NCBI GenBank assembly: GCA_022478985.1
Contig: JAKSZP010015910.1
Coordinates: forward strand, 1 to 64,000
Length of the DNA stretch: 64,000 nt
Source: Massospora cicadina
Taxonomy: Eukaryota; Entomophthoromycota; Entomophthoromycetes; Entomophthorales; Entomophthoraceae
Reading direction: 5' to 3'
Numbering within the stretch: position 1 is the stretch's first letter; every line of letters begins with the position of its first letter. The position numbers and the translations under genes were made by a program. The notes beneath the pieces are model-generated. The model saw only the letters and a list, made by a program, of their open reading frames with translations, was not told the origin of the DNA and did not search any database. Shown here piece by piece: positions 32,250 to 54,469 of this stretch.

Positions 32250-33898
32250 TGTAAGTCTTGGGGACCAGCCCCTACAACTGGATAGGGAGCAGCATCCCTT
32301 TTGGACCAAAAGGGGGCCAAAGGCCCAAGTGAACCCCCTGTCACAGCTGAGTGACCTGGCGCACATGGTTGATGAGCGCTGTGTGACTGCCCTTCCGCCT
32401 AAAGATATTCAGATTTCTCCCCTCCCCCCTCCCCTACCCTGGTAAAATTAATAGAGGGGACCTGCCAGGAGATCATGCAGGCCAGGGGCCATGGGCAGGC
32501 CCATGGGACCCCTCATTCACCAGGGGAAACTTACCAAAATTTTAAAGAAACAGCCAGCTAAGGTATCGGAGTCTGGTCTGCAAATTCTGGGCTAATGGAG
32601 CTGGTCCAGACTGTTCAGGTCTGAGAGTCAGATCAGAACTCGATTTAGGTTTTGAACCAGGCCACCAGTGACTCAGACCAGTTGCCCCTACCCCCAGAAT
32701 GGATCTGAGAAGTTCAGATTGCATAGAAAATCAAATTTTGAGTCCAGACCGAGTTGTGGACAACCAAGCATCAAGGCCACAGCCCCCCAGGATGAATCTG
32801 GGAAATCTGAACCATGTGAGCTGCCCTACTTGAATGGTCAAGGCCTGGATCAGTACCATTGACCTGGTCTGGCCCCAAAAATCTGGGAAAATCAGCAAAA
32901 GTTTTTTTTGATTTTTGTAAAGATTTTGGGCATTCATCCACTCCCCCACCCGCCAGCCAACCAAATTCCATCGCTGATCCCCACCACCCAATACCCTAGC
33001 ATCCTCACTATGCAATTTTCCAAATACTTAAGGCAACTGCCCTGCTGATGGGCAGTTGTTGGTTCATTCTTTATTCTCCTTGCGCTTTTCACCAAAATAA
33101 AGCCAAGTATCTCAAACGCCTTGTTGCGGACTCGACCTGTTTATTTTTTCCTGTTCAAAATTCTGCTGATCGATCCAGCAAAGTGTGCCACCACCCAAAT
33201 TATTATCCCAATGATTGTTGATGGGTCATCCAGTTGCTTAACCCTGCCATGTGGCGGTGGATTGTATCTGTGGTAAACCGCCTTGCTCTCAATGATGGAA
33301 TTAACTCTCCGTCCATTTTCACATATCTGTTAAATGCAAACCCATCTGTTCACTTCGCTGTCAGGTTTCCTGAGAGTGCTCCCCTATTGGAGCAGCCTCA
33401 GGGCGCCCCCACCCTGATGCCCGCGAGCTTGGCCCCCACACCTAGCTCATCTGCCATTGATCCCACCCACCTAAGGGGCCCAGAGTCCCCTGACCAAGGG
33501 GGACTTAGCCCTAACACTCATCGCAGGTCTGTTTTCCCCTCCAACAGCACCCCTGTCCGCGCGGTGGGTCCTATGCCGCCCCTCTCTGGTGCACAGACCC
33601 ACCTACCCTAACTGAAGGTCAGCAACTGCACACCCTGGAGGAGTTTTCATCCTACCCACCTCTCCCACCCTTGGGGGTTGCCCCCGCAAGACTCACAGTT
33701 GCCCCATTGCAACTATCTGGTTTGCCTTGGGGGCCTTTGGTACATTTATAAACATTTGCTTTCCTCACGTCCCCATTAGATCCCCCCTCCTTCTAGTTGC
33801 ATGGACCGCTGTGCCCTTGGCATTCTGAGCTCTCCACTGGGTGCTCACACAGCCTGACTGGGAGCCCAGTCTAATTCTTATCAGCCGTTTCCATGACA
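32250..33898 (+). repeat. Element A 5' LTR (1,649 bp)
   Basis: Starts TGTAAGTCTTGGGGACCAGC and ends CCGTTTCCATGACA, matching the 3' LTR. The first 35 bases contain a GGGG-acca-GCCCC inverted repeat. Long open segments lie inside it (for example 33,234-33,611, Pro-rich), similar to those of the 3' LTR. The last of them reads through the LTR end into gag. Confidence 0.92.
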
Positions 33899-34880
33899 TA
33901 ATGAACTGACCCATAACCTCAGCCTTCTCTGCCCTCCTTGCTGACACTGATGAAGCGTTGGCCTATGCACTTTCCTTAAACATACTCTCTCTGCGACCTG
34001 GCCTTCTCCTGCTGGTTGGCTGCCGCTGTCATCTGAGCATGCCGCCAGTTTGTGTTGACCTGGTCCCCGCCCTGCAGACCCCTGGTATCAAGTGTCACCC
34101 CATCAGTCAACATGATAGGGTTGGGAGTCCCCCTATCCCTTCTGAGGAGGTGGCTGACCAAATCCTGGGTGTCCTGGTGGAACTTCAGGTGTGCTTCACC
34201 GCCGATGGGTGGAAAGCTCCCCTTCCTTCTGATGCCCAGCAGAGCGTAGCTCTCCTTGAAGCCCTAGATGGGGATGCCCACCGCTAGGTCAGGGGAGTGC
34301 TCCGCTTTGCCACTAAGTCTGGGAACCCCACCCCCCTACTGGCGCTGGTCACTTCGGCAGTCCAGGCCCCTGAGTCTAGACTGGCGCGCCTCCTCCGTCT
34401 CTTCACACTAGGTCAGACAGCCATGGACCTGCCCTCCTTGATCAAATCTTTTGTGGTCCTGGCCCGCACAGTGCCTATCCCCCCAAGATCGCCATCTCCA
34501 CCTTCTGAGCTGCCTTGGACCCCACTATGGCTGCCCATGCATCTTGGGACCCCCTCCCTGGGTCCTTAGAAATTGCATTCTCTGTGGCTCATGAAATTGG
34601 GGACAGGCCTTTACATACACCCGTGTGCGCTGCTGCAGCTCTTGAGGGGCCACGTGCCACCCCCTGCTCTCACCCCAGATCAGGAAAGTGGGTCCTTGAT
34701 CCCCCAGAGCTCAGAGCCTGCCCATCCTGGCGCCATCACCCCCCAGTAACCCATAAGACCCCCTCAAAGAGAGTGTAGCGGGAATATGCTTCAACCCTCG
34801 CTGCCCCATTTGGGACAGGGAGGAAGCAGAAACCCCTCCCCATTTCCAGACCAGTCCGGCGCCTCTTGGTCAATCTCTTC
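33719..34880 (+). pseudogene. Element A gag remnant, starting in the 5' LTR
   Basis: VWFALGAFGTFINI and LLLVAWTAVPLAF (from about 33,719, inside the LTR) and HWVLTQPDWEPSLILISRFHD lead across the LTR boundary at 33,898 into AFSALLADTDEALAYALSLN and EEVADQILGVLVELQVCF, with in-frame stops (TGA after AVPLAF, TGA after HDIMN, TAG after GDAHR). The order and wording match element B (SIWFVLGIIFT, LAMPLAFW, ATSALLFEVGAAV, LLDAVEGDANRW). The early part is hydrophobic. No zinc knuckle is seen. This is a structural protein by position; the sequence family is not one I recognise. Confidence 0.6.
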
Positions 34881-37960: not shown

Positions 37961-38384
37961 TTGAGGTGGAGAAGGACTTAGGAAATGGAGCCTATCATTT
38001 AAAGTTACCCGCTCACTGGAAGCAGCATAACGTCTTCCACACCTCCCTCCTGACCCCCTTCAAAGGGAAAGGCCAACATCCCTGGAGCCAATCCTCATTG
38101 GGGAATCCCAGGAAGTGGAGGTGGAGGCTATCCTGTCTTCCTGGAGGTCCCGCAGATCTGTTCAGTACCTGGTTGCCTGGAAAGGCTACCCCTCATATGA
38201 GAACAGCTGGGTGAGTGCACGCAACTACGCAAATTGCAAGGACCTGATAGAAGAATTCCACAACTCCCACCTGGCAGCCCCCCGTCCACCCCCAGAAGAT
38301 TGCAGTCATCCTGACCATAAAGCTCTCAGAGAGGCACAAGAGCTATGCCCTGGTCCATGCCCCATGTGGGGCCTCCTCCCTGTT
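37961..38384 (+). pseudogene. Element A chromodomain region
   Basis: WKQHNVFHTSLLTPFKGKG (GPY/F tail to pre-chromodomain) at about 38,015, then in another frame from 38,115 VEAILSSWRSRRSVQYLVAW, KGYPSYENSWVSARNYANC and DLIEEFHNSHLAAP. This is a chromodomain, which in chromoviruses directs integration to marked chromatin. The first aromatic cage residue is absent and Trp/Tyr positions of YLVAW and ENSW are kept. One frameshift separates it from the integrase tail. Confidence 0.9.
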
Positions 38385-38401
38385 GAAAAAGTAAAGAGTA
38401 G
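38385..38401 (+). promoter_or_regulatory. Element A polypurine tract
   Basis: GAAAAAGTAAAGAGTAG runs directly into the TG of the 3' LTR at 38,402. This is the usual plus-strand primer. Confidence 0.85.
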
Positions 38402-40047
38402 TGTAAGTCTTGGGGACCAGCCCCTACAACTGTATAGTGAGCAGCATCCCTTTCAGACCAAAAGGGGCCAAAGGCCCAAGTGGACCCCCTGTCGCAGCTG
38501 AGCAACCTGGCGCACATGGTTGATGAGCGCTGGTTGACTGCCCTTCCGCCTAAAGATATTCAGATCTCTCCCCTCCCCCCTTCCTCAACCCTGGTAATAT
38601 TAATAGAGGGGACCTGCCAGGAGATCATGCAGGCCAGGGGCCATGGGCGGGCCCATGGGACCCCTCACTCACCAGGGGAAACTTACCAAAATTTTGAAGA
38701 AACAGCCAGCTCAGGTATTAGAGCCCGGTCTGCAAATTCTAGGCTAATGGAGCTGGTCCAGACTGGTCAGTTCTGAGAGTCAGATCAGAACTTGATTCAG
38801 GTTTCGAACCAGGCCACCAGTGACTTGGACCAGTTGCCCCTACCCCCAGAATGGATCTGAGAAGTTCAGATTGCATAGACAATCAAATTGTGAATCCAGA
38901 CCGAGTTGTGGACAACCAAGCACCAAGGCCACAGCCCCAGGATGAATCTGGGAAATCTGAACCATGTGAGCTGCCCAACTTGAATGGTCAAGGCCCAGAT
39001 CGGTACCATTGACCTGGTCTGGCCCCAAAAATTTGGGAAAACCAGAAAAAGTTTTTTTTGATTTATGCCAAGATTTTGGGCATCCATCCACTTCCCCACC
39101 CGCCAGCCAACCAAACCTCATCGCTAATCCCCAACCACCCAATACCCTAGCATCCCCACTATGCAATTTGCCCAATACTTAAGGCAACTGCCCTGCCAAT
39201 GGGCAGTTGTTGGTTCAATCTCTATTCTTGCGCTTTGCTCCAAAATAAATCCGAATACCCCAAATGCCTTGTCACAGACTCCACCTGTTTGTTTTTCCCT
39301 GTTCAAAATTCCACTGATTGATCTGGCAAAGCACGCCACCACCCAAATTGTTATCTCAATGATCACCAAATGGGTCATCCAGTCGCTCAACCCCACCACA
39401 CAGTGGTGGATCATATCTGCAGTAAACTGCCTCACTCTCGATGATGGAGTCAACTCTTCATCCATTTTTGCATATCCATTAAAAATGAACACATCTGTTC
39501 ACTTCGCCGTCAGGTTTCCTGAGAGTGCTACCCTATTGGAGCAGCCTCAGGGCGCCCCCGCCATGATGCTCATGATCTCAGCCCCCACACCTAGCTCGTC
39601 CACCATTGATCCCACCCACCTAAGGGGCCCAGAGTCCCCTGACCAAGGGGGACTCAGCCCTAACACTTGTCACGGGTCTGTTTTCCCCTCTGACAGCACC
39701 CCTGTCCGCGCGGTGGGTCCTGTGCTGCCCCTCTCTGGTGCACAGACCTACCTACCCTAACTGAAGGCCAGCAACCGCGCACCCTGGAGGAGTTGTCATC
39801 TTTCCCACCTTTCCCACCCTTGGGGGTTGCCCCCGCAAGACTCACGGTTTCCCCCATTGCAACCATCTGGTTTGCCTTGAGGCCTTCGGTACATTTATAA
39901 ACATTTGTTTTCCTCACGTCCCCACTAGATCCCCCCTCCTTCTAGTCACATGGACCACTGTGCCCTTGGCATTCTGGGATCTCCACTGGGTGCTCACACA
40001 CCCTGACTGGGAGCCCAGTCTAATTCTTATCAGCCGTTTCCATGACA
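38402..40047 (+). repeat. Element A 3' LTR (1,646 bp)
   Basis: Matches the 5' LTR throughout. It carries a 199-residue uninterrupted frame (39,161-39,760). The hydrophobic start includes AVVGSISILALCSKI and the Pro-rich end includes HLRGPESPDQGGLSPN. A further open stretch (38,480-38,776) begins near AHMVDERWLTALPPKD. The 5' LTR holds the same segments with one or more frame breaks. CAAAATAAATCC (39,240-39,251) holds a polyadenylation-like hexamer. Confidence 0.92.
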
Positions 40048-40530: not shown

Positions 40531-41223
40531 GAGTAGGTGATTCTAGTATTAATATAATGTAGCACATTTTGTGTACAACCTAACTGTAAAAATTTTACTA
40601 AAAATGATCCTATACTTCTCAAATAATGCCAAGTCTTGGTTTTTGGGCTCAGTTACCAAGAAAGGTTTATGAAAGAAAACTTACAACTAGCGGAACTTCC
40701 TGCCTCATCTTTAAGGCCTAATTTGTTCAAAATTTTGAAATTTAGTGAATAATTAGTATTTAGACAACTAGTAAAGTATGAATAAAAGTAACAAGTTGAC
40801 TTTGATTTATCTGAATAAAGTATGAATATAACTTTGGTAATAGCACTTTAATTTCACCATTGTTAGCAAGATAACACCGGGTAAAGAAACTGGCTCTAAG
40901 TTTTCTTAGTAGATTGGTGTAATATGCTGCCATATAGTCATTGAGGAATTTTTAAGTCAAAGTTTTCATTATAATTTGATGGCCCGCTGAGATAGTTAAC
41001 TATGAGCATGCCTTAGCAGAATGCCTTTTGTTGTGTAATTGACTGAATCAATCGCATGATTATTGTTCATTTGATTATAACTGATTACTAAGGCTTTGCT
41101 CATAAGTAAGTAAGTTTTAAAAGTTTATTAAATAGTCAATCAAATAAATATATTATTGTTAATTTAGGTTTAATAAGTTTATAATTTAACATTTATCTAA
41201 GTCCAAATATTTTAAAGTTATAA
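40531..41223. other. Decayed, AT-rich; probably gag/protease side of element C
   Basis: Lies upstream of the C RT on its strand, but no protease or gag motif is readable. Confidence 0.4.
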
Positions 41224-41500
41224 ATTTTATTCAAGGTGGGCTGACCTGAGGATGATAATGCGCCAATTGAGAGTTTTGAATTTGTGGTATTAGGAGCATA
41301 AAACCCAGAAATCCTCCGCACATGGAATATGTTAGGTCAGGAACTCCATGTACCGCTTTGGTGTTCACTATCTTGGATTGGGGCATTGTTGCGCACTGCC
41401 AACACAATCATTATCATCCCCTACTCAAAATTTCATCCACTGGTATCAAACCTAAAGCATTGGTCATTGAGTTCATACACTACCACTGGGGTACCCTCCC
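41224..41500 (-). mobile_element. SINE S1, about 277 bp
   Basis: Minus-strand copy: head GGGTACCCCAGTGGTAGTGT at 41,495-41,476, box B-like AGGTTTGATACC, body with ACATGGAGTTCCTGACCTAA, 3' end CTCAGGTCAGCCCACCTTGA followed by ATAAAATT at 41,224. Flanks TTAAAGTTATAAATTTT and TTAAATTCATATATTTT are a possible eroded TSD. Confidence 0.85.
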
Positions 41501-41580
41501 TTTATTTAAATTCATATATTTTGTGAATCATAGTTTTTTGAATCTGATGTCTAATGTTTTATGAATTTTATTATAAATTG

Positions 41581-41747: not shown

Positions 41748-43177
41748 TGTAAGTCCCAGGGAATGTCCCCTGGGCGTTGATCGGGCCATTTTCCCATTCC
41801 TGAGTAAAAAGGTACTGAAGTGGGTGGCAGTACCCCTCGTTACTTAGAGCTATCTCGCCCATGTGGTAGATGAGCGCTGGTTAACATCTCTTCCGCTTTG
41901 GATCCCTCCACCAGTAACCACACTCACCTCATCAGAACTGTTATGGTTAATTAGTGAAATCTGCGCCAAGATCACTGAAATGAAATTGATCAGTACAAAA
42001 TTGAGTGGTAATCAGCCTGATGTTTGGATTTCAAGTGGTCAGAAAGCGATGAAGACTCATCTATCAGCTGGAATTGCCAACATTTTCAATTCAGCTAACA
42101 CTACAATCGCAAAAATCACCCCCTCCTAAAATCATCAGTGATCATCCCTGATGGGCAGGTAACAGCATTGGGCATCATTGACAAGGGTTTGAAGCTCCCT
42201 TCTGGAAAATTGGGCATTGCAGCTGATGCAATGCTCTTAACTGAACGAACAGCCCAGTGACCCAGCACGGGCAGGTTGGGTATCCTGAACCCATTCCCAA
42301 CCAATTGGGCCCACCCCTACGTGGTTTGGCCTTGGGGGACTACCACTGCTCATCAGGCCAAATGCCATCACACCAACCATTGGAAATGTAGCTGAGCCTC
42401 AGTTTTGACGTTTGAGGTCGAATCAACAGCAATTCAGCCTGCTACCAAATTCTTCAATGTCAGTTCCCAATAAACCTATCTTCCCCATTCCCAAAATTAT
42501 TCGCTGGTTAGGTCAAAATTGAGGGTCATGACCCCAGATTGTCCTTGCATCAATTGACTACTATTTAATCAGTTTCATCGCACTGAGAAAATTGTTGGTC
42601 AATTTCTTCCTTTTCCTTTGCAATAAAATTTTGCCTCAAAAACCAATCAATTTTGATATATTGTATTTCATTCTGGCCGCATTCCCAATGGCATTCCCCT
42701 GGTGGCCTATCAGTCCATACACTGGATGGGCTCTACCAGTATTCATGGTCGCTATGGCCCCACTGTTGTAGATTGGATTCACCGAGCTAGATACTTCTGG
42801 CAATTTAACCCTGTCGTTATGAACTTTCATCAACAATATACTAAGATCTTGTGGCCTTATGTCACCCATCTTCAAGCAAGGATCCGCCCCCTTGTCTCCC
42901 CAGTTGAATCTGCCCCATATACCGTTGAACTTATTGAAACTATTTCTGTGGCTCCACCCCTGCAGTAAGACCTCCAGGGTCAGGATGGGCTCAATTTGGT
43001 TTGTTCTTGGGATCATATTCACTGTTGTATTACACCAAAAATATGTTGTTTCCCAATGCCCAGCTCCATACAACATCGTTTGGTTGGCAATGCCTCTGGC
43101 ATTCTGGCTTGCTTCTTGGGTGCTTATGCATCCTGACTGTCAGGACAGTCTAAGCTTCTTCTGCCATTTCCATGATA
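41748..43177 (+). repeat. Element B 5' LTR (1,430 bp)
   Basis: Starts TGTAAGTCCCAGGGAATGTC; the first 30 bases hold the inverted repeat CCCAGGG-aatgt-CCCCTGGG. Ends CCATGATA (CA changed to TA; the 3' copy keeps CTATGACA). Contains coding-like stretches (41,863-42,129; from ATG 42,457; 42,702-42,968; 42,859 onward) that recur in the 3' LTR and the solo LTR. Confidence 0.92.
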
Positions 43178-44170
43178 TAATCAACCAACCATTGTTTCCA
43201 GCCACTTCCGCCCTGCTCTTCGAGGTGGGAGCTGCAGTGGTTACCCTTTACCAAATAAATGTGCAATCAGTAGCCTTCTTTTTGTTGTTTGTTTGGTCAC
43301 TTACTGATTTTGGGAATAGTATCTGCTCTACCTTGGAGAATCTTCTTCAGACCGCCAAAGCTGCGCGGATTGCTGCTCCTCCCCCTCCCAATAGCTCAGA
43401 AGGAAGCTCAAGTGTTCCTTCCTAGGAGATAGCCAATCAAGTTCTTGACGCTTTCACTGAGGTGCAAATGCATTCAGCAATTGCGCTTAAAAACGCCTCC
43501 ACAATATCTCATGCCCAAAAAGGGCTCACGTTATTGGATGCTGTGGAAGGGGATGCCAACCGTTGGTTTAGAGGCCTTCTGCGCTCTTCCTCACAATTAG
43601 GAGACCCCACTCCACTGATGGCTGTCGTGTCAGCTGCCTTGAAACCCCCTGTGTCACGCTCAGACCACCTATTCAGAGTGCTCTATGCTATGTCTAAAGC
43701 CCTTAGCTTGGCTTCTTTGGTCTCTGTTTCCGTGAGCTGGCTCCCACGCTGGTCCTCTCTAATGATATGCTTCAGGCAGTCTTTAGATCAGGTTTGGATT
43801 TGGTTTCCGCTCATCACGAGGCTTGGTCCACCATACAAAGAACAGTAGATCAATTATGTGTCACCACAACTACTATCAATGCCTTCCCTCGCCATGCTTC
43901 CCACTATTGGAAGGGAATTTTATGATAAGGTTGCCCAACTATGACACGAATAAAATGTCTATCTTTGAACCAGCGATGGACCCAGTTGCCAATCCTATTG
44001 AGACTCCTGTGTCCGAGTTGGCTGGTCCCAATTCACCTGTAAATGAATCCGTGAAAGCCCAGATGGAGGAAGTTGGCTCCCCCGGCCTTGTGATTCCAAT
44101 TTTTGCTCCAGCAAAAACCCCAACCTTCTCCCCAATTTGCCAGTTATTTCTTCAGTCACAATAGAAACAG
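42457..44170 (+). pseudogene. Element B LTR-borne frame and gag remnant
   Basis: From an ATG at 42,457 (MSVPNKPIFPIPK) the reading continues with breaks through IDYYLISFIALRKLLVNF, then ILAAFPMAFPWWPISPYTGW, ILWPYVTHLQARIRPLV and GSIWFVLGIIFTVVLHQ to LAMPLAFWLASWVLMHPD. It passes the LTR end (43,177) without a stop into ATSALLFEVGAAVVTLYQIN, FFLLFVWSLTDFGNS and, after a stop (TAG at 43,424), LLDAVEGDANRWFRGLL. Four or more stretches are hydrophobic enough to span a membrane. The later part aligns with element A gag. No zinc knuckle is visible. Role as gag is by position; the membrane-like front is unusual. Confidence 0.6.
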
Positions 44171-44700
44171 TTAAATCCTCCAATTAACAAAACTTTTTAT
44201 TTCTTATTGTCTATGAAGATCAGTGTCAATTCTCACCATGTCTCCTTTGAGGCCCTGGTGGATATCGGGGCCACGGGTAACTTAATGATTGTTGAGTTGG
44301 CCCAACAATTAGAACTGGGCATGGATGTAGGTCCCTCGGTGATGGTGGCTTCATCTGCTTACCAGACCTCATATGTCATCCATCAGCCAAAACCTTTTTG
44401 ATCTATCAGTTTAGCTTCTGCAATCATTTTTCTGCTATGCTGAACTTGTTGTTTCCAGTGATCTTAGGTGTGGGATGGTGGCGCTGATAACATGTCAAGA
44501 TTCACTTGGAGTCTAATAAGTTGTCGTCTGCAAATGATCAGCTGGAGGGTGAATTCCCTCTAATTAAAACTATTAAGAAAACAAAAGTCCGCAGTTCTAT
44601 TACTTCCCTCATCACTTCTGTGGGCATACCAGCCAATTTTCCTGAAAGCTTAATGCACTATTGAAGTATCTTTGACTCAGAAAAGGCAGATCGTCTGCCA
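44171..44700 (+). pseudogene. Element B protease remnant
   Basis: FEALVDIGATGNLMIVELAQ at about 44,245-44,305 is the protease active-site loop with D-I-G in place of D-S/T-G. Open 44,207-44,401, then broken by a stop. Linker to RT includes ITSLITSVGIPANFPESLM. Confidence 0.65.
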
Positions 44701-44960
44701 CCTCACACTAGGTTTGACTGTGGATTTTGAATGACTGTGGAGTTGGTATATATCTACTGTCTGTTGTATCCCCATACAGCGGAGGAAGAGATTGTGCTCA
44801 ACACTTGGTTAGACGATATGCTGAAAAAGGGTGGTTGTTCAAGGAGACCTCGCCAGTCACATCCGCCATCATCTTTGCCAAAAAGGCGGATGGTTCCCTC
44901 CATCCCTATGTGGATTATGGCCACTTAAACAAAGTAACAGTTTCTGATCCCTACCCCCTG
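44701..44960 (+). pseudogene. Element B RT, first part
   Basis: TSPVTSAIIFAKKADGSLHP then VDYGHLNKVTVSDPYPL, the start of the RT palm. A frameshift lies near 44,815 between the LDDMLKKG segment and this frame. It stops at the N insertion and resumes at 50,374 with PLEQTISQEIAKSCVFSKLD-type wording, as in element A at 35,700-35,770. Confidence 0.92.
44956..44960. repeat. TSD of element N, left (CCCTG)
   Basis: CCCTG immediately before the LTR at 44,961 and again at 50,374-50,378 immediately after the other LTR. Confidence 0.93.
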
Positions 44961-45593
44961 TGTCAGGTACTGGTGTACTACTGACCTGGTTGGGTGTAGC
45001 TAACCATGAGTTAGCATAACCAAGGGGTTTGGCCCAGTATGAAAAGGACACTAGAGGTGTCCAGGTATAAGGAATGGTGGGTAAGCTGGTATGGGAGTTG
45101 CTTAAAGACATGGCGTTAAAAGGAGATTGTTGGAAGGGCATTCCTTGTAGGCTGGGTTGGTAAATCAGTAATGATAGCACTTTAGTAAATAAACTTAATA
45201 GTGTTTTCATTATAAGAATAATTTTATTGACCACAAAAATTAACCAAATGAATGCCTTGGTTTTATATACCATCCAACTTCCTGGAATTACCTAAGCTTA
45301 ATTGATTTTAAACGGTGCACTATCCTTCTCTGGAGCTTATGGGATTGCAACTTGCATGTGATTTTGAAAGGCAGTGGAAATCGTCTCAGTATCATCATAA
45401 ATTAGTTTTGGTGCGATTAATTGACTGAATACTATTGCAAATAAAGTAATTTAAACAATTAATCGAATATTTTCACTACAATCATTAATTTGATATGCAA
45501 TTATTCGATCTAATTTCATCACAAATCATATTGATCTGACTGACAATATCTATAATCTTAGGAATTCCACTAATGTCAGATTTTACCCTGACA
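44961..45593 (-). repeat. Element N 3' LTR (633 bp)
   Basis: Starts on its own strand at 45,593 with TGTCAGGG and ends at 44,961 with CCTGACA. The last about 36 codons of the pol frame lie inside it. Confidence 0.95.
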
Positions 45594-46117
45594 TCATCTC
45601 CCACCAAGGCTGAAGCTACCTGAGAGGCCTTCTTCTTCCATTTTTTTAATAACTTGCCTGCATTCTTTAAGTTCTCCTCAGGCTCCCAAGTGCTCTCTTC
45701 TGCAGGATATCCAGCCCACTTAACCAGATATTGCACTTTACCATGGTGTGTACTTCTCCCTTTAATAGCCTCCACCTCATACTCAGGACAGGGATCTTTA
45801 ATAAGTGGTGGTGCTAGCTCTTTAACTTTCTGGTGTGGTAGGGAGATTCCTTCTTTCATGTGCAAGAGGGAACGATGGAATACATTGTGAATTTTCCAAC
45901 CTTCAAGCAATTTAAGATGGTAAGCCACCTTTCCTATAACCTCTGTGACCTTGTATGGCCCTACGCGCCGATGGGCAAGTTTCTGACATGGTATATCCAA
46001 AAGAATATTTTGAGAATCCAGGTAAAATTGGCTACCTACTTCCAACACCTTACCAGGCACACGCTTCTTATCTGCAAAGTCTTTGTAAGTATGTACTGCT
46101 CGGTTCAGATTAGCCAA
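45485..46117 (-). pseudogene. Element N integrase C-terminus and chromodomain
   Basis: 210 open residues. FADKKRVPGKVLEVGSQFYL, AHRRVGPYKVTEVIGKVAYH (GPY/F) and HNVFHRSLLHMKEG precede the chromodomain at about residues 110-165: EYEVEAIKGRSTHHGKVQYL and VKWAGYPAEESTWEPEENLK. The three aromatic cage positions (Tyr, Trp, Trp) are kept, so it could have bound methylated histone H3. After it comes a Lys-rich tail and about 36 residues that read into the 3' LTR. A break near 46,120-46,190 separates it from the integrase core. Confidence 0.9.
45594..45605 (-). promoter_or_regulatory. Element N polypurine tract
   Basis: On the minus strand GGTGGGAGATGA leads straight into the LTR start TGTCAGGG. It lies inside the pol reading frame. 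Confidence 0.75.
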
Positions 46118-46188
46118 GCAAAGTGCATGAGTTTGATGGATGTTCCATAAAAATTCCCTCCAGGGGGGTTATCCGCTTCAACAGATGG

Positions 46189-46970
46189 TTATGGTTCCCA
46201 GTTCACATCATACCTATAGTTAGCTTTGAACGGTGACATTCCAGTTGAAGAGTGATCTAGAGTGTTATAACAGAACTGGGCCATAAGCAATAACTCAACC
46301 CAGTTGTCCTGCTCTGCATTAACATAGAATCTCAGGTACTGCTCCAGCACCTGATTAATTCTCTCAGTATGTCCATCAGTCTGCGGATGGTATGCAGTGG
46401 ATAAACATCTCTTGATTCCAAGGTCTACAAGGAGCTGTTTCCAATAATTTGATGTAATTTGAGGCCCTCTGTCTGAGATCACCTCCTTGGGAGTACCATG
46501 ATACAGGAATACATTTCTCTAAACAGATGAGCTATCTCTTTAGCCGTGACATTGGTAGAAGTTGAGATAAAATAAGCCATTTTAGTAAATTTATCTACCA
46601 CCACCAACACTTCATTGAATCCTTGGGAACGGGGTAGCTCTACTATAAAATCCTTGGACATTGACTCCATGGCTTTTGTGCGATTGACAATGGCTGTAAT
46701 TGTCCTTCAGGAAGTCCTCTACGAACCTTGATGCGCCCACAGACCTCACATCCTGCCACATATTTTAAGACATCCCCTCTAAGACCAGGCCATCGGTAAG
46801 TTTTCTGAATCAGTTGGATCATTTTATTCTTCCCAGGGTGTCCTACCATGCCTACATCGTGGTGCTCGCGCATGACATCCAATCTTAAAGGTCCTTCTGG
46901 CACATAAAAACAACCTTTCCAGAATACTAACTGACCCTTTAACGAGTAACCCTTTTTTGTACCATACACT
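46189..46970 (-). pseudogene. Element N integrase, zinc-binding and catalytic core
   Basis: Zinc-binding H2C2 domain: REHHDVGMVGHPGKNKMIQL, TYRWPGLRGDVLKYVAGCEV, CGRIK (46,880-46,720). Core: VVVDKFTKMAYF (first Asp), ISDRGPQITSNYWKQLLVDL (second Asp), STAYHPQTDGHTERINQVLE (third acidic position), then DHSSTGMSPFKANY. A frame change near 46,650 and another near 46,480 break the frame; all three catalytic positions are still present. Confidence 0.92.
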
Positions 46971-47106
46971 GTCTAATTTTTGAATAAGATCATTCTTCAC
47001 ATTCTGACAGAAAGCATCATCATTTTAAACATCCAAAATCTCATCTCCACGGCCCACTAGCACAAGATGAGTTAATATTGCAGCGAGATCCTTGGTCTTC
47101 AGAAGC

Positions 47107-48480
47107 ACCTGTGTTTAAACTTGGTATTTCCCCCTTTTCAGGGATCATGTCAGGACGCCGGCTTAAGGAATCTGGAACCAAATTAATTTTCTCAGGTTTG
47201 TAACCAATTTCTAAGTCATAATCCTCCAGAGTAAGTGCCCATCATGCCTGACGCTGGTTCAATTGCCGTGGAGTAAAAAAGTAAGTCAAGTTTTTATGGT
47301 CTGTCAAAACTTTCACTGGGTACTTTGCCCCACACAGGTACCGGCGCCAGTGTTTGAGACATTGAACAACAGCTAACAAATCCTTGTCATAGATAGGATA
47401 GTTGCATTCCGCTGGGATAAATTTCTTGGAATAGTAGTCTAAAGGATGCAGCCTACTATCATCCCCCTCCTGCAACAAAACCCTCCCAAGAGCGTATCCT
47501 GAAGCATCAGTCTCAACCACAAAGGGATTTTCATCATTGGGCATTGCCAACACAGGTGCAGAAACAAAGGCAGCCTTCAAGACAGAAAAAGATTTTTCCG
47601 CTGCCTGAGACCATTTATATGGAACACTTTCTGATGTAAACCGTGTTAAGGGTAACGCAATAGAAGAAAAGTCTTTGATAAAATCCCTATAAAAATTTGC
47701 CAAGCCTAAGAAACTACGAACATCTTTCCAGCTATTAGGTGTAGGCCAAGATGTGATGGCATCCACTTTGCTAGGTGCCATGGTGAGCCCATTCCTGCCC
47801 ACAACATAACCAAGAAATTTAACTTCCTCCTGTGCAAATTCACATTTTGATAGCTTTACAGGCAAGTTGTACCTTCCAAGTTGTTCAAAGACCAAATTCA
47901 AGTGCAGTAAGTGTTCCTTCTGCGCCTTACTGTAGATCAAAATGTCATCAAGGTAGGCTACGCAGAAGTGGTCCAGATAGCCACCTATCACCGTATTAAT
48001 CATTTGTTGAAATGTACTAGGTGCGTTGCACAACCCAAATGACATCACCACATACTCAAATAGCCCAAATAATGTCTTAAACGCTGATTTCCACTCATCA
48101 CCTTCTTTTATACGTATCTGGTTGAATGCATCCCTCAAGTCAACTTTGGAAAAGATTCTAGCTCCAGACAATTGGTCACTCAAGTGATCAGCATCAGGTA
48201 AGGGGTACCGGTTCTTTATGGTTATATCATTGAGCTTCTGGTAGTTTATACATGGCCGTAGTCCACCATCCTTCTTACTAACAAACAACAAGGATGATGA
48301 ACAGGGAGAGCGGGAAACCCGTATGAACCCCTTCTCAAGCATTGTATCCAGATATTCTCTCAGGGCAATTTTTTCCCTCTTATTGCAACTATAAATAGGT
48401 TCATGGGTGGTCTGCTTCCCTTCTAGTAAATCAATCGCGTGATCAAAGAATCCATGAGCTGGTAGTTGCTTAGCCTCCTC
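47107..48480 (-). pseudogene. Element N reverse transcriptase and RNase H
   Basis: 366 open residues from 48,342 to 47,242. RT: VSKKDGGLRPCINYQKLNDI, FSKVDLRDAFNQIRIKEGDE, VMSFGLCNAPSTFQQM, HFCVAYLDDILIYSKAQKEH (catalytic YLDD intact), FLGLANFYRDFIKDFSSIAL. RNase H: FVVETDASGYALGRVLLQEG, YPIYDKDLLAVVQCLKHWRR (the usual catalytic Glu of KELLA is Asp), VLTDHKNLTYF. The frame upstream runs to a TAG at 48,481 and ends downstream at 47,242, with a readable DYDLEIGYKPEKINL tail to about 47,107. Confidence 0.95.
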
Positions 48481-48965
48481 CTATCCAAAAAGTGAAGCCC
48501 ATTTTGAGAGATACTCAGGGATCTTCCATTTGAAAGGATCCAATGGACCAACCTGATTTACAGTTGCGGACATGTCCAAATTTTTATGCTCTTCTAACAC
48601 ACACTCAAGAAGTTTATCCTTTAGCTTAATTGTGATAGAGTTCCGTCCATAATTGTGCTGGAGTTCAACCTGTGTCCACCAAGGATACCCAATAATTACA
48701 GGGTGGGGTGAACTACGCAGGACCCAAAACTCAACTTCCATTTTACTTACCCCAAACTTCAAGTCAATGTGACGTGAGCAGCGGTAAGCTAGAGACTGTT
48801 CATCATTTCCCAATGTTACTTTCATCAATGTTTTCTTTGCATGCAAGCCCAGCATCTTCACTGCATGCTCTGAGATGAAGTTCCGTGAGGCCCCACTGTC
48901 CAGAAAAGCCATAGTTTTCAAAAACTTCTTTCCAACATGTAAGTTCACTCTTAATAATGGATAAG
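48481..48965 (-). pseudogene. Element N protease
   Basis: Open from 48,948 to 48,481. FLKTMAFLDSGASRNFISEH carries the D-S-G active site; HPVIIGYPWWTQ is the usual later I-I-G/L-G box. A single TAG (at 48,481-48,483) is all that separates it from the RT frame, which continues as EEAKQLPAHGFFDHAIDL. Confidence 0.9.
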
Positions 48966-48999
48966 ACTGAGTATCATTCTTTAATGAAGAAACGATGGT

Positions 49000-49740
49000 C
49001 TGGGGGTTTCTATTCTTTTAATTCCCTTGAATACAGCATTCTTCTGGTCCGCCAACACTCACCATTAGATTCTGTGTGATATCAATAACTTTTTTAATGG
49101 CAGCGTGGTGGGATGATGTCTGATTAATTCTGCTAAACGGCTTCCTAACCCTTGTCTGAAGTAAAGCGCTCCCATTTCTTCATCTAACTCTGTCTTCTGA
49201 AAGATATCCAGGAACATCTTTATGTATACCTCAACAGTTTTCCCTTCTTGCTGAAAATTCATCAAGGCTATCTTTGACTCTAATCTAGTATTAGTGTAAG
49301 TTGCTGCTGCTAACAATTGACTTTTGAATTCCTCATATTTAGTGCACACATTATCATTCTCTTCTAGGTTAATTATAAACCAATTCAGCACATTACCAGT
49401 GAGTTGTGAACCCACTTCCATAATTATCTTTCATCATCTGAATAGGTCTCAGAATAAGCTTTAAAATATGCCCCCAACAACGCAAGACCTTCTTTCACTT
49501 CACCTAAGGATAATTTCTTTTTCAAGGGAACTGTAGGGTAAGTCATAGGTGTATGGTTGGCCACACTAACTGTCTGCACTTGACTGGGTCCTACTGCTCC
49601 TTTATAAGCTCTTTTATCTTTCTTTACTGGGGAAAACATCCACACCAGCAATTGGTAACTTCCCATCAACATGAAATATATCAAAGCCCCCAATAATAAA
49701 AACGCGGTGAGATATTTATTGTAGGTAGTGGCGGTCAAAT
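49000..49740 (-). pseudogene. Element N gag
   Basis: NVLNWFIINLEENDNVCTKY, EEFKSQLLAAATYTNTRLES, MNFQQEGKTVEVYIKMFLDI and LYFRQGLGSRLAELIRHHP match the Retrotrans_gag family layout (49,421-49,065). The upstream open stretch (to 49,738) begins right at the LTR edge and has a strongly hydrophobic run LTAFLLLGALIYFMLMGSYQ (about 49,710-49,650). A stop separates the two. No CCHC zinc knuckle is seen between gag and protease. Confidence 0.75.
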
Positions 49741-50373
49741 TGTCAGGGACTGGTGTACTACTGACCTGGTTGGGGGTAGCTAACCATTAGTTAGCATAAC
49801 CAAGGGGTTAAGCCCAGTATGACAAGGACACTAGAGGTGTCCAGGTATAAGGAATGGTGGGTAATCTGGTATGGGAGTTGCTTAAAGACATGGCTTTAAA
49901 AGGCGAAAGTTGGAAGGGCGTTTCTTGTAGGCTGAGGTGGTAGATCAGTAATGATAACACTTTAGTAAATAAACTTAATATTGTTTTTATTATAAAAATA
50001 ATTTTATTGACCACAGAGATTAACCAAATGAATGCCTTGGTTTTATATACCATCCAACTTCCTGGACTTAACTAAGCTTAATTAATTTTAAACAGTGCAC
50101 TATTCTTCTCTGGAGCTTATGGGATTGCAACTTGCATGTGATTCCAAAATCCAGTGGGAATCATCTCAGTCTCATCATAAAATCTTTTTGGTGAGATTAA
50201 TTGACTGAATACTATTGTAAATAAAGTAATTTAAACGTTTAATCAAATATTTTCACTACAATCATTAATTTGATATGCAATCATTCGATCTGATTTCATC
50301 ACATATCATATTGATCTGACTGACAATATCTATAATCTTAGGAATTCCACTAATGTCAGGATTTATATTGACA
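49741..50373 (-). repeat. Element N 5' LTR (633 bp)
   Basis: Same length as the 3' LTR with no indels. Begins on its strand at 50,373 with TGTCAATATAAATCC and ends with CCCTGACA at 49,741. The internal region starts ATTTGACCGCCACTACC, which does not show the usual TGG start of a tRNA primer site. Confidence 0.95.
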
Positions 50374-50378
50374 CCCTG
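50374..50378. repeat. TSD of element N, right (CCCTG)
   Basis: See 44,956-44,960. Confidence 0.93.
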
Positions 50379-50970
50379 CCTCTGGAGCAGACGATCAGCC
50401 AGGAAATTGCCAAATCCTGTGTGTTCTCTAAGCTGGATCTAAACTCTTTTAACCAAATTTGGATAAAGAAAGGGCAAGAATGGTTAACAGCGATCAGGAT
50501 GAAGCGCAGCATTTTCCAATTTCGTGTGATGCCCTTTGGGCTGAAGAATGCTCCAGCTATGTTTCAACTTATGATCGATAATGTACTGGGTAACCTCCAG
50601 TTTACCTGCGCAGTTGCATATATTGATGAACTTCTGGTTCACTCCCCAACTCCTGAATAAAATGCTACTGACTTGGAAGCAGTTGTGGCCGCCTTGCATA
50701 AGGCAGGCTTGTTTGTCAAGCCTTCCAAGTGCAAGTTCTATAAGGAGGAGGTTACCTTCCTTAGGAACCTTGTCCTTAAAGATGGTTATGCAATCCCTCC
50801 CAATAAGTTGGACACTATCTGAGAATGGCCAACCCCAACTACTAAGAAACAACTACGAAGTTTCTTGGGAACCATCAATTTCTTAAAAGATTTCCCTGGC
50901 ACTTTCCCAGCTTGCTGCCCCGCTCCACTCTCTCTTACAGGGAAAAACGTACCATTCCACTGGTCCCCCA
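50374..50970 (+). pseudogene. Element B RT, second part
   Basis: Continues the RT after the N insertion: VFSKLDLNSFNQIWIKKGQE, FQFRVMPFGLKNAPAMFQLM, CAVAYIDELLVHSPTPE (the catalytic box reads YIDE, second Asp changed to Glu), then ALHKAGLFVKPSKCKFYKEE-type wording in another frame, FLGTINFLKDFPGTF. Stop TAA after SPTPE at 50,658-50,660. Confidence 0.92.
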
Positions 50971-51420
50971 AATGCCAACAGGTGTTTGAATCAATTAAAG
51001 AGGTGCTCGTGTCCCCTCCCATTATAAAACATGCTGATCCCACCAAGCCATGTATCGTTGCATGCGACGCCTCATTGGTAGCAGTGGGAGCAGTGTTGCT
51101 CCAGGAGCACAATGGCTTAGAGCACCTGGTCGCCTATTTTTCCTGGAAGTTCACCTCTATGGAGCAGCCTTGGGTTATTTATGACAAGGAGTTGGCATCC
51201 GTTGCATGGGCATTAACTCATTGGAGGTATCTGTTACAGGGTGCTCAACATGAGTTAACGGTCCTCATGGATCACCAGGCTCTCTTGTACTTTCGTAAAC
51301 TCCAAACATTGGCGCATTGGCAAGCCCAAACCTAACAGGACCTGTAAATTTTAACTTCAGATATGAATTTGTAAAAGGTGCACTCAACATACTTCCCAAT
51401 TTCCTCAGACGCAGCCCTGC
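50971..51420 (+). pseudogene. Element B RNase H
   Basis: Open 50,865-51,335. CIVACDASLVAVGAVLLQEH (first Asp), FTSMEQPWVIYDKELASVAW (Glu), WRYLLQGAQHELTVLMDHQA (MDH in place of TDH). A TAA follows at about 51,333, then RYEFVKGALNILPNFLR in another frame. Confidence 0.9.
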
Positions 51421-52400
51421 CCACTGTTCCTCAACCCAGAGGAAGCGGATCTCGTTACCATGATTCCTGCTGCCCAAATCCTGCCAATTCCCCCCTGTCA
51501 TTTCATCCATCACTCTGGATCCTGACGCCCAGCTAGTTGCTCAGGTCTTAGCCAGTCAAATGGCCTGCCCTGAGGGCGTGGAGTTGGTTGAGCAGTTGGC
51601 TCAACAGATTCACAAACACTCCCTATACTCCTTGGAGGAGGGGCTCATTTATTTTTGGTCTCAAATCTGGTTTCCCCTCCTTCATAACCGAGGTATTCCG
51701 CGCACATCACAATCCCCTCACGGTCAGTCATCCTGGCAACAAATAATGCATCAACTTGATTAAGCGGACCTACAATTGGGCGGGTTTGACCAAAGGAGTT
51801 CCATCCTGGATCACAATTGCATTACTTGTTCCAGGGCTAAGTTGGACCACTCCAGTAGAAATGGTCTTTTACACCCCTTATGGCAGGTGGAGGATCTATG
51901 GACATCGGTGTCCAGAACTTTATTGTTGAACTCCCCTGTTCTAACAGGTTCACAGTGGTGATGGTGGTGGATCATTTCACTAAATATTCCCTCTTTATAC
52001 CTTGTACTTCCGCAATTATGTCAGAGGAAACCGCCCGCCTTTTCATATACCATGTGTTCTTAATGTTTGGTCTCCCACAGGAGATCATCAGTGACCATGG
52101 TTCACAGTTCACGGCACGGTTTTGGAGTGAACTCCTATCTATCCTAAAAATATCCCCCTGTTGTTCCACTGCATATCATCCCCAGTCTGATGGAAAGACC
52201 AAGAGAGTTAACCAAATCCTTGAACAGTACCTGCGTTGTTATGCTGCACCTGCACAGGACACCTGTGCCGGCAATCTCCCCTCTCTCAAAACGCTTATAA
52301 CAATGGGACTCACGCATCCCTGGGTTTTTTCCATACAAAGCAACGTTGGGTTATAATCCTTCATTTTTAGTTGAACCTTGCTTGTGGCCCAAGGTCCAAG
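51421..52400 (+). pseudogene. Element B integrase
   Basis: N-terminal part open 51,560-51,763 (VELVEQLAQQIHKHSLYSLE), zinc-binding CITCSRAKL at about 51,818. Core from 51,880: VQNFIVELPCSNRFTVVMVV, VDHFTKYSLFIPC (first Asp), EIISDHGSQFTARFWSELLS (second Asp kept, unlike element A), AYHPQSDGKTKRVNQILEQY. Frame broken near 52,290. Confidence 0.9.
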
Positions 52401-53030
52401 CTACCGCGGACCACACTGAACATATCAGGTTGACTCAATCCTTAGTGCGGGAACACCTCACTAAAGCCATCAATGATTACAAGAGGTTCATGGATTGCAA
52501 GCAGCTCCCAGGTCACAATCTAATGGTGGGCTCCTATGTTATGCTCAATACCCGTCATTTAAGAATTTAAGCCCCTTCCCATAAGTTTTCTAGTAAACGC
52601 TCGGGCCCCAATTTGGTGGAGGAGGTCTTGGGTAACGGTGCAGTCCAGTTGAAGCTCCCTACTCATTGGAAATAGCACCCCATCTTCCATGTTTCCCAGC
52701 TGTCGCCCTTCAAGGGTATGGTTCCCATGGAACCTGAACTGATCATCAAGAACGGGGAAGAGGCTAAGGCAGAAAATATCCTGGCATCCCAAAATCCCGA
52801 TGGTCCATACAATATCACATGGCTTAGAAAGGGTATCTAGCATATGAGAACAGTTGGGTCAAGGCGCGCAATTGCGCAAACTGTATGGAACTGGTTGAAG
52901 CATTCCACGAATCCCACCAGAAGCTCCCCGCTCCCCCCAAAAGTTGTGACGGTTATAATGATCAAGTTACCCAAGGCACACAAGAATGTGGCTCTTGTGC
53001 AGCTTCCCAATGGTGTTGCCCTTCCTTTGG
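52401..53030 (+). pseudogene. Element B integrase tail and chromodomain remnant
   Basis: REHLTKAINDYKRFMDCKQL and VGSYVMLNTRHL (to 52,570), then HWK..HPIFHVSQLSPFKG (about 52,665-52,715), EAKAENILASQNPDGPYNIT (about 52,760), and in another frame YENSWVKARNCANCMELVEA. The chromodomain is split by a frameshift and a TAG near 52,836. Confidence 0.8.
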
Positions 53031-53046
53031 AAAAAGGAAAGGTTAA
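53029..53046 (+). promoter_or_regulatory. Element B polypurine tract
   Basis: GGAAAAAGGAAAGGTTAA immediately before the TG of the 3' LTR. Confidence 0.85.
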
Positions 53047-54469
53047 TGTAAGTCCCGGGGAACGTCCCCTGGGTGTTGATCAGGCCATTTTCCCATTCCC
53101 AAGTAAGAAGGTTTAAAGAGGGTGTCAGTACCCTCGTTACTCAGGGAGATCTCGCCCACGTGGTAGACGAATGCTGGGTAACAGCTCTTCCACTTCAGAT
53201 CCCTCCCCCAGTACCCACACTCACCTTAGCAGAACTGTTACAGTTAATTAGTGATTCCTGCGCCAAGATCACCGAAATGAAATCAATTGGTACAAAATTG
53301 AGTGGTAATCAGCCTGATGTTCAGATTACAAGTGGTCAGAAAGGAATGAAGACTGATCTATCAGCGGGAATTGCTGATGGTTTTGATTCAGCTAACACTA
53401 CAATTGCAAAAATCGCCCCCTCCCAAAATTATCAGGAATCATCCCTGATGGGCAAGTAACAGCATTGGGCACCATCGACAAGGGTTCAAAGCTCTTCCTT
53501 CTGGAAAATCAGGCATTGCAGCCAATGCAACACTCTTGACTGAACGAATGGCCCAGAGACCCAGAATGGGCGGGTTGGGTATCCCAAACCCACTCCCAAC
53601 CAATTGGGCCCGCCCCTACATGGGGTGGCCTTGGGGGATTCCCACTGCTCGTTGGGCTAAACACTGTCACGCCAACTGTTGGAAACATAGCTGAGCCTCA
53701 GTTTAGATGTTTGAGGTTGAACTAACAGTGACTCGGCCTGCCGCTGAATTTTCAATGTCAGTTCCCAGTAAACCTATCTTCCCCATTCCCAAATTATTGG
53801 CCGGTTAGGTCAAAATTGAGGTTCATGATCCCAGCTTGTCCTCGCATCAATTGACTACTATTTAATCAGTTGCATCGCACTGAGAAAATTGTGGTCAATT
53901 TCTTTTTTTCTTTGCAATAAAATTTTGCCTCAAAAACCAATCAATTTTGATTTATTTGATTTCCTTTTGGCCGCATTCCCAGTGGCTTTCCCCTGGTGGC
54001 CTATCAGTCTGTACACTGGATGAGCTCTACCAGTACTCATGGTCACTATGGCCCCTACTGTTGTAGATTGGACTCAGTGAGCTAGATACTTCTGGTAATT
54101 TAACTCTGTCATTATGAACTTTTGTCAACAATATACCGAGATCTTGTGGCCTTATGTCACCCATCTTCAAACAAGATGCGCCCCCTTGTCTTCCCAGTCG
54201 AATCCGCCCTGTATACTGGTGAACTTATTAGAACTATATATGTGGCTCCGCCCCCTGCAGTAAGACCTCCAGGGTCTGGGGTGGGCTCAATTTGGTTTGT
54301 TCTTGGGATCATATTCACTATTGTATTACACCAACGATTCATCATTTCAAGGCCTGGCTCCATACAACGTCATTTGATTGGCAATGCCTCTGGCATTCTG
54401 GCTTGATTTTGGGTGCTTACGCATCCTGACTGGCAGGCCAGTCTAAACTTCTTTTGCGTTTCTATGACA
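53047..54469 (+). repeat. Element B 3' LTR (1,423 bp)
   Basis: Matches the 5' LTR. Reading frame 53,073-53,459 (VTQGDLAHVVDECWVTALPL, AGIADGFDSANTTIAKIAPS) and 54,122-54,406 (PPAVRPPGSGVGSIWFVLGI) parallel those of the 5' and solo LTRs. Confidence 0.92.

What the first reader, a model, noticed from the sequence alone, without database searches (positions are those of the whole stretch)
41748..54469. LTRs of the A/B gypsy family carry long coding-like frames, the last reading through the LTR end into gag
Seen: in both B LTRs and the solo LTR (17,589-18,955) the same protein-like segments occur in the same order: VDERWVTALPLQIPPPV-like near the LTR start, LISFIALRKLLVNF, WWPISPYTGWALPVF, ILWPYVTHLQARI, PPGSGVGSIWFVLGIIFT. 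In element A the LTRs hold a related start (AHMVDERWLTALPPKD) and a related end (VWFALGAFGTFIN, VLTQPDWEPSL). In both A and B the last segment crosses the LTR/internal boundary into gag-like sequence (FHDIMN/FHDIINQ). If real, 1.4-1.65 kb of each LTR is coding and the 5' part of gag is duplicated at both ends. This is a problem for a normal U3-R-U5 layout, because RNA starting in the LTR would lack the upstream coding part.
Basis: partly seen in the sequence, partly recalled or inferred. Interest (0 to 1): 0.8.

Follow-up and report, generated by a model that had tools for sequence, protein, structure and literature searches.

The report
Retrotransposons with protein-coding LTR ends
Three families of old jumping genes in this genome use both ends of their long terminal repeats as protein-coding sequence (the tail of the enzyme gene on one side, the start of the particle gene on the other) with the predicted transcription start between them, an unusually large-scale version of an arrangement known piecemeal elsewhere.

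Summary
A and B are chromodomain Ty3/Gypsy retrotransposons with 1.65- and 1.43-kb LTRs and 5-bp target duplications. A TATA box, a predicted RNA start and AATAAA lie mid-LTR. The start is marked by a motif complementary to the sequence just after the LTR, as in self-priming Tf1/sushi elements. The U3 frame before it is the tail of Pol (A, C) or of a frame following Pol (B), read from the 3' LTR. The U5 frame after it is the start of ORF1/Gag, read from the 5' LTR; in B and C it crosses the LTR end and primer site into gag. Nothing is lost, so U3-R-U5 works. LISFIALRKLLVNF is TATA/R sequence.

Frame-specific stop avoidance in 40 B, 22 A and 41 C genome LTRs supports this, with synonymous excess among shared variants in B U5, B U3 and A U5; some simpler tests were not significant. 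C is nested in B and has no detectable U5-protein similarity to it. A has an in-frame UGA inside the primer site in 5 of 5 copies. A and B U5 products have TM-like windows, C's does not; a membrane role is inference. New variant of a known kind.

The parts
41748..43177 (+). Element B 5' LTR (TG..; its own terminal CA is mutated)
   Evidence: TSD GGAAG read directly
53047..54469 (+). Element B 3' LTR
41749..42126 (+). U3 coding frame in the B 5' LTR (126 codons, one in-frame stop in this copy); the counterpart that would be translated is in the 3' LTR
   Evidence: 0.73 stops per copy against 9.0 and 10.0 in the other frames, 40 copies; 18 of 40 without a stop; shared-versus-singleton p=0.0165
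52943..53423 (+). ORF3/Pol-tail frame entering the B 3' LTR (end approximate)
   Evidence: A-B pN/pS 0.48 before the LTR and 0.37 inside it, other frames 0.79-1.50; stop-free for about 68 codons before the LTR in 3 copies
42562..42568 (+). TATA-like TATTTAA, B 5' LTR
   Evidence: exact in 35 of 40 copies
42594..42604 (+). predicted RNA 5' end / self-primer motif, B
42622..42627 (+). AATAAA, B 5' LTR
   Evidence: exact in 33 of 40 copies
42688..43177 (+). U5 part of ORF1 in B (ATG at 42688; this copy has indels)
   Evidence: dN/dS 0.32 in frame, solo against B; ATG in 37 of 40 copies
42985..43422 (+). open piece of ORF1 crossing the B LTR end into gag
43179..43189 (+). predicted primer-binding site of B, inside ORF1
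43426..43845 (+). Gag-like piece of B in the same frame as U5
   Evidence: tblastn to A, E 2e-18; no Pfam hit; position before protease and RT
32250..33898 (+). Element A 5' LTR; U3 frame about 32251-32430, TATA-like 33025, primer motif 33058-33068, AATAAA 33096, U5 frame from ATG 33211
33900..33910 (+). predicted primer-binding site of A, containing in-frame UGA
38402..40047 (+). Element A 3' LTR; the Pol/chromodomain frame runs into it
38031..38498 (+). A chromodomain ORF crossing the 3' LTR start
   Evidence: PF00385 E 1e-12
17589..18955 (-). solo LTR of a B-related subfamily
44961..50373 (-). Element C, third chromovirus family nested in B; LTRs 50373-49741 and 45593-44961; TSD CAGGG
45485..46168 (-). 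C integrase C-terminus/chromodomain ORF running about 35 codons into U3
   Evidence: PF00385 3.7e-17 and SH3_Tf2-1 1.1e-13; 0-0.31 stops per 20 codons over 16 three-prime copies
44962..45210 (-). C U5 part of ORF1 in the 3' LTR (from the ATG)
   Evidence: no stop in 32 of 41 copies, other frames 0 of 41; 29 of 41 also without indel
49427..49786 (-). C ORF1 piece crossing the 5' LTR end (49741) into a hydrophobic segment

Best explanation
A, B and C are decayed members of self-priming chromodomain Ty3/Gypsy families (Tf1/sushi-like) whose LTRs are coding at both ends. RNA starts mid-LTR, 32-35 nt after a TATA box, at a short motif that pairs with the internal sequence just after the LTR and would prime reverse transcription. 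ORF1 starts in U5 about 24 (C), 94 (B) or 152 (A) nt after the RNA start and, in B and C, runs across the LTR end and primer site into Gag. The Pol/chromodomain frame (A, C) or a frame following it (B) runs into U3 of the 3' LTR and stops before the promoter. Each part is therefore present once in the RNA, and reverse transcription copies both into both LTRs. Shown: geometry, frame-specific openness in all three families, selection signals in B U5, B U3 and A U5, covarying primer and primer-site motifs. Inferred: RNA start, self-priming, translation, membrane association of the ORF1 N-terminus, and how A deals with its UGA (readthrough, or a separate ORF).
For: (1) Frames: in 22 A LTRs the U5 frame has 0-0.23 stops per 40 codons per copy against 0-3.1 (mostly above 0.8) in the others; 11 of 22 have none over about 280 codons. 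In 41 C LTRs 32 have no stop from ATG to LTR end, 0 in the other frames. In 40 B LTRs U3 has 0.73 stops against 9.0/10.0 and U5 2.5 against 5.3/6.5. (2) Selection: solo-B dN/dS in U5 0.32 (bootstrap 0.20-0.51) in frame, 0.76-1.26 in other frames, 0.74 within the B LTR pair. Codon positions between solo and B 26/18/45, p=0.0015; within B 21/15/16; contrast p=0.024. Shared against singleton syn/non at non-CpG sites: B U5 27/39 v 60/217, p=0.0025, other frames 0.37/0.75; B U3 23/32 v 45/140, p=0.0165, others 1/0.46; A U5 31/33 v 55/138, p=0.0056, others 0.26/0.86. (3) A-B blocks at the LTR ends: pN/pS 0.37-0.61 in frame, 0.77-1.50 in other frames; RT control 0.22. (4) RNA start: motif at TATA +33 (A5), +32 (B5), +35 (C), then AATAAA. 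It is the best complement in the whole LTR for A5, C5 and C3; 14 of 5000 shuffled A primer sites do as well near the TATA box. 12 of 22 A LTRs hold the exact 11-nt complement of the A site; 2 of 8 five-prime B copies hold the exact complement of the motif in 16 of 40 B LTRs; in C 28 of 41 LTRs and 9 of 13 sites give 8 exact pairs. A and B differ at four compensated positions. (5) Continuity: C U5 to gag (14 copies) and C Pol into U3 (16 copies); A Pol into U3 (5 copies) and B U5 to gag (6 copies).
Against: No RNA or protein data. Plain codon-position counts over 40 B copies are not significant (31/20/34, p=0.15; CpG-masked p=0.215). With the stricter cut (shared by 8 or more) B U5 gives p=0.07 and B U3 0.0495. 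Solo-B positions in U3: p=0.37 and 0.53; U3 dN/dS 0.74 and 0.45 with other frames 0.59-1.12. In the non-coding middle all three frames give solo-B ratios 0.39-0.62, and U3 353-640 gives 0.45-0.68, so a ratio below 1 alone proves nothing here; only the frame contrast does. A-B codon-position counts in single LTR blocks are significant in 2 of 8 (p=0.0125 and 0.0075), the other six p=0.09-0.56, while gag and pol give 3e-5 or less. A U3 has only 3 shared variants; C U5 gives p=0.052; C U3 too few sites. Single copies are decayed: 1 of 40 B copies lacks U5 stops and 0 lack both stops and indels; A 13 and 3 of 22 from the ATG; C 32 and 29 of 41. Only 4 of 15 C three-prime copies are themselves open for 100 codons before the LTR, and 8 of 13 five-prime copies for 99 or more after it. 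In the window's B copy the primer pairs at only 9 of 11, better runs lie elsewhere in B5 and A3, and the solo LTR shows no run of 7 or more with the B5 site. Family A has a conserved UGA in the primer site, and its frame meets further stops inside. The C U5 part has no TM-like window in frame (best 1.12), while another frame reaches 1.72. The structure model is poor (pLDDT 55).
Confidence: 0.86

Rival explanations
1. The frames are chance: protein-like translations of conserved regulatory DNA in the LTRs.
For: True of part of it: the LISFIALRKLLVNF segment is TATA/R sequence, and U3 beyond 378 in B shows little frame preference. Matches also appear on the minus strand of the U5 end. Several simple codon-position tests fail.
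Against: Frame-specific stop avoidance in 103 LTR copies of three families, frame-specific dN/dS, continuity into gag and from Pol.
Confidence: 0.04
2. The U5 frame is a separate small protein or leader peptide, not the N-terminus of Gag; Gag is made by re-initiation or from a different start.
For: Family A has an in-frame UGA within the primer site in 5 of 5 copies and further stops in that frame inside.
Against: In B and C the same frame runs without a conserved stop into gag; in A the 40 codons after the UGA keep pN/pS 0.61 against B, other frames 0.81 and 1.27.
Confidence: 0.3
3. Origin: the LTRs of an ancestor with shorter LTRs expanded into the ends of pol and gag, or foreign coding sequence was captured at the boundary, so coding ends became repeated.
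For: A simple way to obtain a Pol tail in U3 and a Gag start in U5; not tested here.
Against: No outside homologue was found for the capture version: 0 Pfam families above cut-off for 8 of 8 LTR and gag pieces scanned, 0 protein hits, 0 in viral contigs. The protein collection may hold few eukaryotic proteins. This concerns origin and is compatible with the best explanation.
Confidence: 0.3

Closest known systems
Tf1/sushi group chromoviruses (Tf1, Tj1, sushi-ichi)
   Same: Chromodomain, Tf2-1-like SH3 in A and C, no tRNA-type TGG after the A and B LTRs, predicted 8-11 nt self-primer at the RNA start pairing next to the LTR. Self-priming as a group feature: passages of PMC10085805, PMC6317226 and PMC4600332.
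   Different: LTRs here are 0.63-1.65 kb (a table in a passage of PMC3601003 gives 572 for its sushi training set) and code at both ends; no passage I saw describes this. The 2001 paper on vertebrate members was seen only as a cited reference.
Ty1 (yeast)
   Same: Primer-binding site lies in the GAG ORF (passage of PMC4974528); a GAG start inside the LTR is recalled, from no call.
   Different: Ty1 is a Ty1/Copia element primed by tRNA-iMet; its LTR holds only a few GAG codons (recalled), against about 83 (C), 165 (B) and 230 (A) here.
Plant CRM group A, Beetle7 and Bingo chromoviruses
   Different: Only the Pol end is reported in the passages seen; no U5-encoded ORF1 start. Other plant chromovirus clades than Tcn1 are not self-primed (passage of PMC6317226).
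Ty1 Gag trafficking
   Same: Gag made at the ER through signal-recognition particle (abstract start and passages of PMC3945221), a possible model for a hydrophobic ORF1 N-terminus.
   Different: Ty1 Gag lacks a recognisable signal or TM segment; here TM-like windows are predicted in A and B, not shown to act.

Membership tests
LTR retrotransposon | Direct LTRs with TG..CA ends and 4-6 bp target duplication | tested here: met
   A, B, C boundaries and 5-bp duplications; solo 4 of 5; B5 end mutated
Ty3/Gypsy chromovirus | RNaseH, then integrase, then chromodomain | tested here: met
   A: RNaseH, rve (29.8 bits, below the 32.6 cut-off), chromodomain; B: RNaseH and rve by Pfam, chromodomain by tblastn to A; C: RT, RNaseH, integrase SH3, chromodomain, integrase core not scanned
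Tf1/sushi group | Self-priming: RNA 5' end complementary to the site after the LTR | tested here: met
   Sequence complementarity and A-B covariation; weaker in the window's own B copy; priming itself not testable
Tf1/sushi group | Tf2-1-like integrase SH3 domain | tested here: inconclusive
   A 1.5e-13, C 1.1e-13; B 34-aa fragment 0.0071, below cut-off. That this domain defines the group is my assumption.
Tf1/sushi group | Position in RT-integrase phylogeny | not tested
   No reference sushi sequences were at hand
Ty1-like layout (analogy only) | Gag frame starts in the LTR and contains the primer site | tested here: met
   B and C; A has UGA in the primer site
Ty1/Copia membership | Integrase before RT | tested here: not met
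   rve lies after RNaseH in A and B; integrase SH3 after RNaseH in C

The most novel reading that the evidence does not exclude
A lineage of self-priming chromoviruses in which half or more of each LTR is coding: promoter, self-primer and poly(A) signal are squeezed between the Pol tail and the Gag head, and the Gag precursor begins with an LTR-encoded, membrane-inserting segment. In one family the primer site doubles as a regulated UGA between that segment and Gag. Every solo LTR then carries a promoter plus an in-frame start of a protein.
Probability: 0.42. Interest if true: 0.75.

Novelty: new variant of a known kind. Interest (0 to 1): 0.6.

Why it matters
LTRs are usually treated as non-coding control regions. 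Here the ends of two genes are replicated as LTR, so solo LTRs scatter a promoter fused to a start codon and coding sequence. The primer site is under both base-pairing and coding constraint, and standard annotation (gag after the LTR, pol before it) would truncate both proteins. It also makes testable whether Gag of such elements has a membrane-inserted N-terminus.

Tried and rejected
Rejected: whole-LTR coding (U3 middle and TATA/R show no consistent frame). Rejected, by inference from the motif geometry: RNA starting upstream of U3. Rejected: tRNA-type priming for A and B (no TGG in the first 42 internal nt). Led nowhere: protein search with the B crossing piece (66 candidates, 0 hits) and the B U3 piece (12 candidates, 0 hits); viral contigs (20 pattern matches, 0 relatives); Pfam on 8 U5/U3/gag pieces of A and B (one sub-threshold match, E 0.2); PDB with the gag piece (3 matches, E 0.1-0.36); single-sequence fold (pLDDT 55, not taken to fold search); C against B U5 (best E 0.74 and 55); solo piece against A U5 piece (E 8.2); RNA duplexes z about -2. 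The first look at C had wrong boundaries and was redone; the row 'internal just after LTR' was counted in a wrong frame and is not used. The genome search with the solo LTR did not complete.
Full report
What is there. Elements A (32250-40047) and B (41748-54469) are LTR retrotransposons with LTRs of 1649/1646 and 1430/1423 nt, flanked by 5-bp duplications GGTGC and GGAAG (read). A solo LTR of a B-like subfamily lies at 18955-17589 on the minus strand. B is split by element C (50373-44961, minus strand, 633-nt LTRs, duplication CAGGG). Pfam finds RNaseH and integrase core in A and B (the A core just below the curated cut-off), chromodomain and Tf2-1-like SH3 in A, a sub-threshold protease in B, and Gag, protease, RT, RNaseH, SH3 and chromodomain in C. 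The B chromodomain was seen only by tblastn to A.

The peptides.

Where the RNA starts. Neither A nor B has a TGG in the first 42 internal nt. Instead the 11 nt one base in from the LTR pair with a stretch in the LTR. In A5 this is the best of the positions tested (11 of 11 with two G-U), 33 nt after TACTTAA and 38 nt before AATAAA. In B5 the homologous stretch (9 of 11) is 32 nt after TATTTAA and 28 nt before AATAAA, although B5 has better runs elsewhere. Shuffled primer sites do as well near the TATA box in 14 (A5), 165 (A3), 213 (B5) and 214 (solo LTR with the B5 site) of 5000. In C the best run of the LTR is 35 nt after TATATAAA and 6 nt before AATAAA. Genome copies sharpen it: 12 of 22 A LTRs have the exact 11-nt complement of the A site, which 4 of 5 five-prime A copies carry. 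Of 8 five-prime B copies, 2 (L017, L029) have a site exactly complementary to the motif in 16 of 40 B LTRs. In C, 28 of 41 LTRs and 9 of 13 sites give 8 exact pairs. The A and B motifs differ at four positions on both sides. Passages of PMC10085805 and PMC6317226 call self-priming a common feature of the Tf1/sushi group. This puts the RNA start near LTR position 809 (A), 847 (B) and 360 (C).

Is it coding? Between the solo LTR and B the U5 frame has dN/dS 0.32 (bootstrap 0.20-0.51); the other two frames give 0.76-1.26; the two LTRs of B, which diverged after insertion, give 0.74 (0.44-1.48). A control warns against reading the value alone: the non-coding middle gives 0.39-0.62 in all three frames, and U3 353-640 gives 0.45-0.68; U3 2-339 gives 0.74 and 0.45 in frame against 0.59-1.12. 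Codon-position counts in U5 between solo and B are 26/18/45 (p=0.0015), within B 21/15/16 (p=0.55), contrast p=0.024; in U3 they are not significant. A-B blocks give pN/pS 0.37-0.61 in frame at the U3 start, just before the 3' LTR, at the U5 end and just inside, with 0.77-1.50 in the other frames; RT as a positive control gives 0.22. The simpler A-B position counts reach significance in only 2 of 8 LTR-related blocks.

Genome copies, counted in alignment-column frames: the A U5 frame has 0-0.23 stops per 40 codons per copy from column 781 to the LTR end (22 copies); 11 of 22 have no stop over about 280 codons, and an in-frame ATG at column 961 is in 21 of 22. B (40 copies): U3 0.73 stops over 126 codons against 9.0 and 10.0, with 18 of 40 free of stops; U5 2.5 over about 164 codons against 5.3 and 6.5, with only 1 of 40 free; ATG in 37 of 40. 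At two of the three most frequent B U5 stop positions the other copies mostly carry CGA or CAA, as CpG decay would give. C (41 copies, median divergence 3.8%): 32 free of stops from ATG to LTR end, 0 in either other frame. Free of stops and indels: A 3 of 22, B 0 of 40, C 29 of 41. Non-CpG variants shared by several copies are more often synonymous than singletons in the coding frame: B U5 p=0.0025 and B U3 p=0.0165 (shared by 4 or more; 0.07 and 0.0495 at 8 or more), A U5 p=0.0056 (3 or more). Neutral or against: codon positions in 40 B copies (p=0.15 and 0.215), A U3 (3 shared variants), C U5 (p=0.052) and C U3. B U3 from 378 to TATA gives p=0.035 in one frame and 0.17-0.20 in the others; I treat it as not shown to be coding.

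Continuity. Over 6 B five-prime copies (B5 and 5 of the 7 others) the U5 frame has 0-0.5 stops per 30 codons for about 900 nt. Over 14 C five-prime copies it has 0-0.21 per 20 codons across 253 nt of LTR and 300 nt of internal sequence; copy by copy, 8 of 13 are open for 99 codons or more past the LTR. Over 5 A copies the U3 frame is the Pol/chromodomain frame, with 0-0.2 stops per 30 codons for about 520 nt upstream. Over 16 C copies it has 0-0.31 per 20 codons across 270 nt and into 35 codons of U3, ending at a TAA present in 38 of 41 LTRs, though only 4 of 15 single copies are open for the whole 100 codons upstream. For B, 7 upstream stretches were fetched and only 2 proved to be 3' LTRs; with B3 that makes 3 copies, in which the U3 frame is stop-free for about 68 codons before the LTR. 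It is not the chromodomain frame in this copy, so a separate ORF3 or a frame change is open, and a second frame is also stop-free over much of that stretch. In A, 5 of 5 five-prime copies have UGA inside the primer site, followed by similar sequence in the same frame; further in, that frame has 0.8 and then 1.8-2.0 stops per copy, so the A gag frame is not simple.

Mechanism. The RNA begins between the two coding parts. U5 at its 5' end supplies the ORF1 start; U3 at its 3' end supplies the Pol tail. Hydropathy averaged over copies gives TM-like windows at similar distances from the LTR end in A (codons 157 and 195 of 230) and B (98 and 131 of 165, and one at 13), none in their other frames. 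In C the U5 part has none in frame (best 1.12; another frame reaches 1.72), but a hydrophobic segment lies just past the LTR end. A membrane-inserted ORF1 N-terminus is my preferred reading, by inference only, and weakest for C.

What is known. Ty1's primer site lies in its GAG ORF (passage, PMC4974528). [quoted passage not shown] What I did not find, in searches of an open-access library (listings, with passages of the papers named here), is a chromovirus with the Gag start encoded in U5 or with both LTR ends coding. That is weak evidence of absence. Hence: new variant of a known kind.

Host. First-look candidates numbered 18,536 (B), 5,903 (A) and 2,353 (C), of which 40 each were scored; these are not copy counts.

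Noticed in passing
44961-50373 minus strand: A third, younger chromovirus family (C) nested in B shows the same two-ended coding LTR without detectable similarity of its U5 protein to B.
   Followed up: yes
33899-33910: Family A carries an in-frame UGA within the predicted primer site in all 5 five-prime copies examined, followed by conserved sequence in the same frame: possible readthrough.
   Followed up: partly
2938-7883 and 59062-64000: Two copies of a LINE (CCHC-like ORF1, endonuclease/RT-like ORF2, by reading) lie in opposite orientation near both window ends, 92% identical.
   Followed up: no
29932-30211, 41218-41501, 55369-55622, 57014-57297: Short dispersed repeat of about 280 nt, four copies 72-77% identical; one lies just left of element B and two to its right.
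   Followed up: no
9098-9835 and 16711-17451: A 740-nt direct repeat, 72% identical, of unknown nature.
   Followed up: no
53047 (B LTR start): The LTR start TGTAAGT contains a splice-donor-like GTAAGT; not tested.
   Followed up: no
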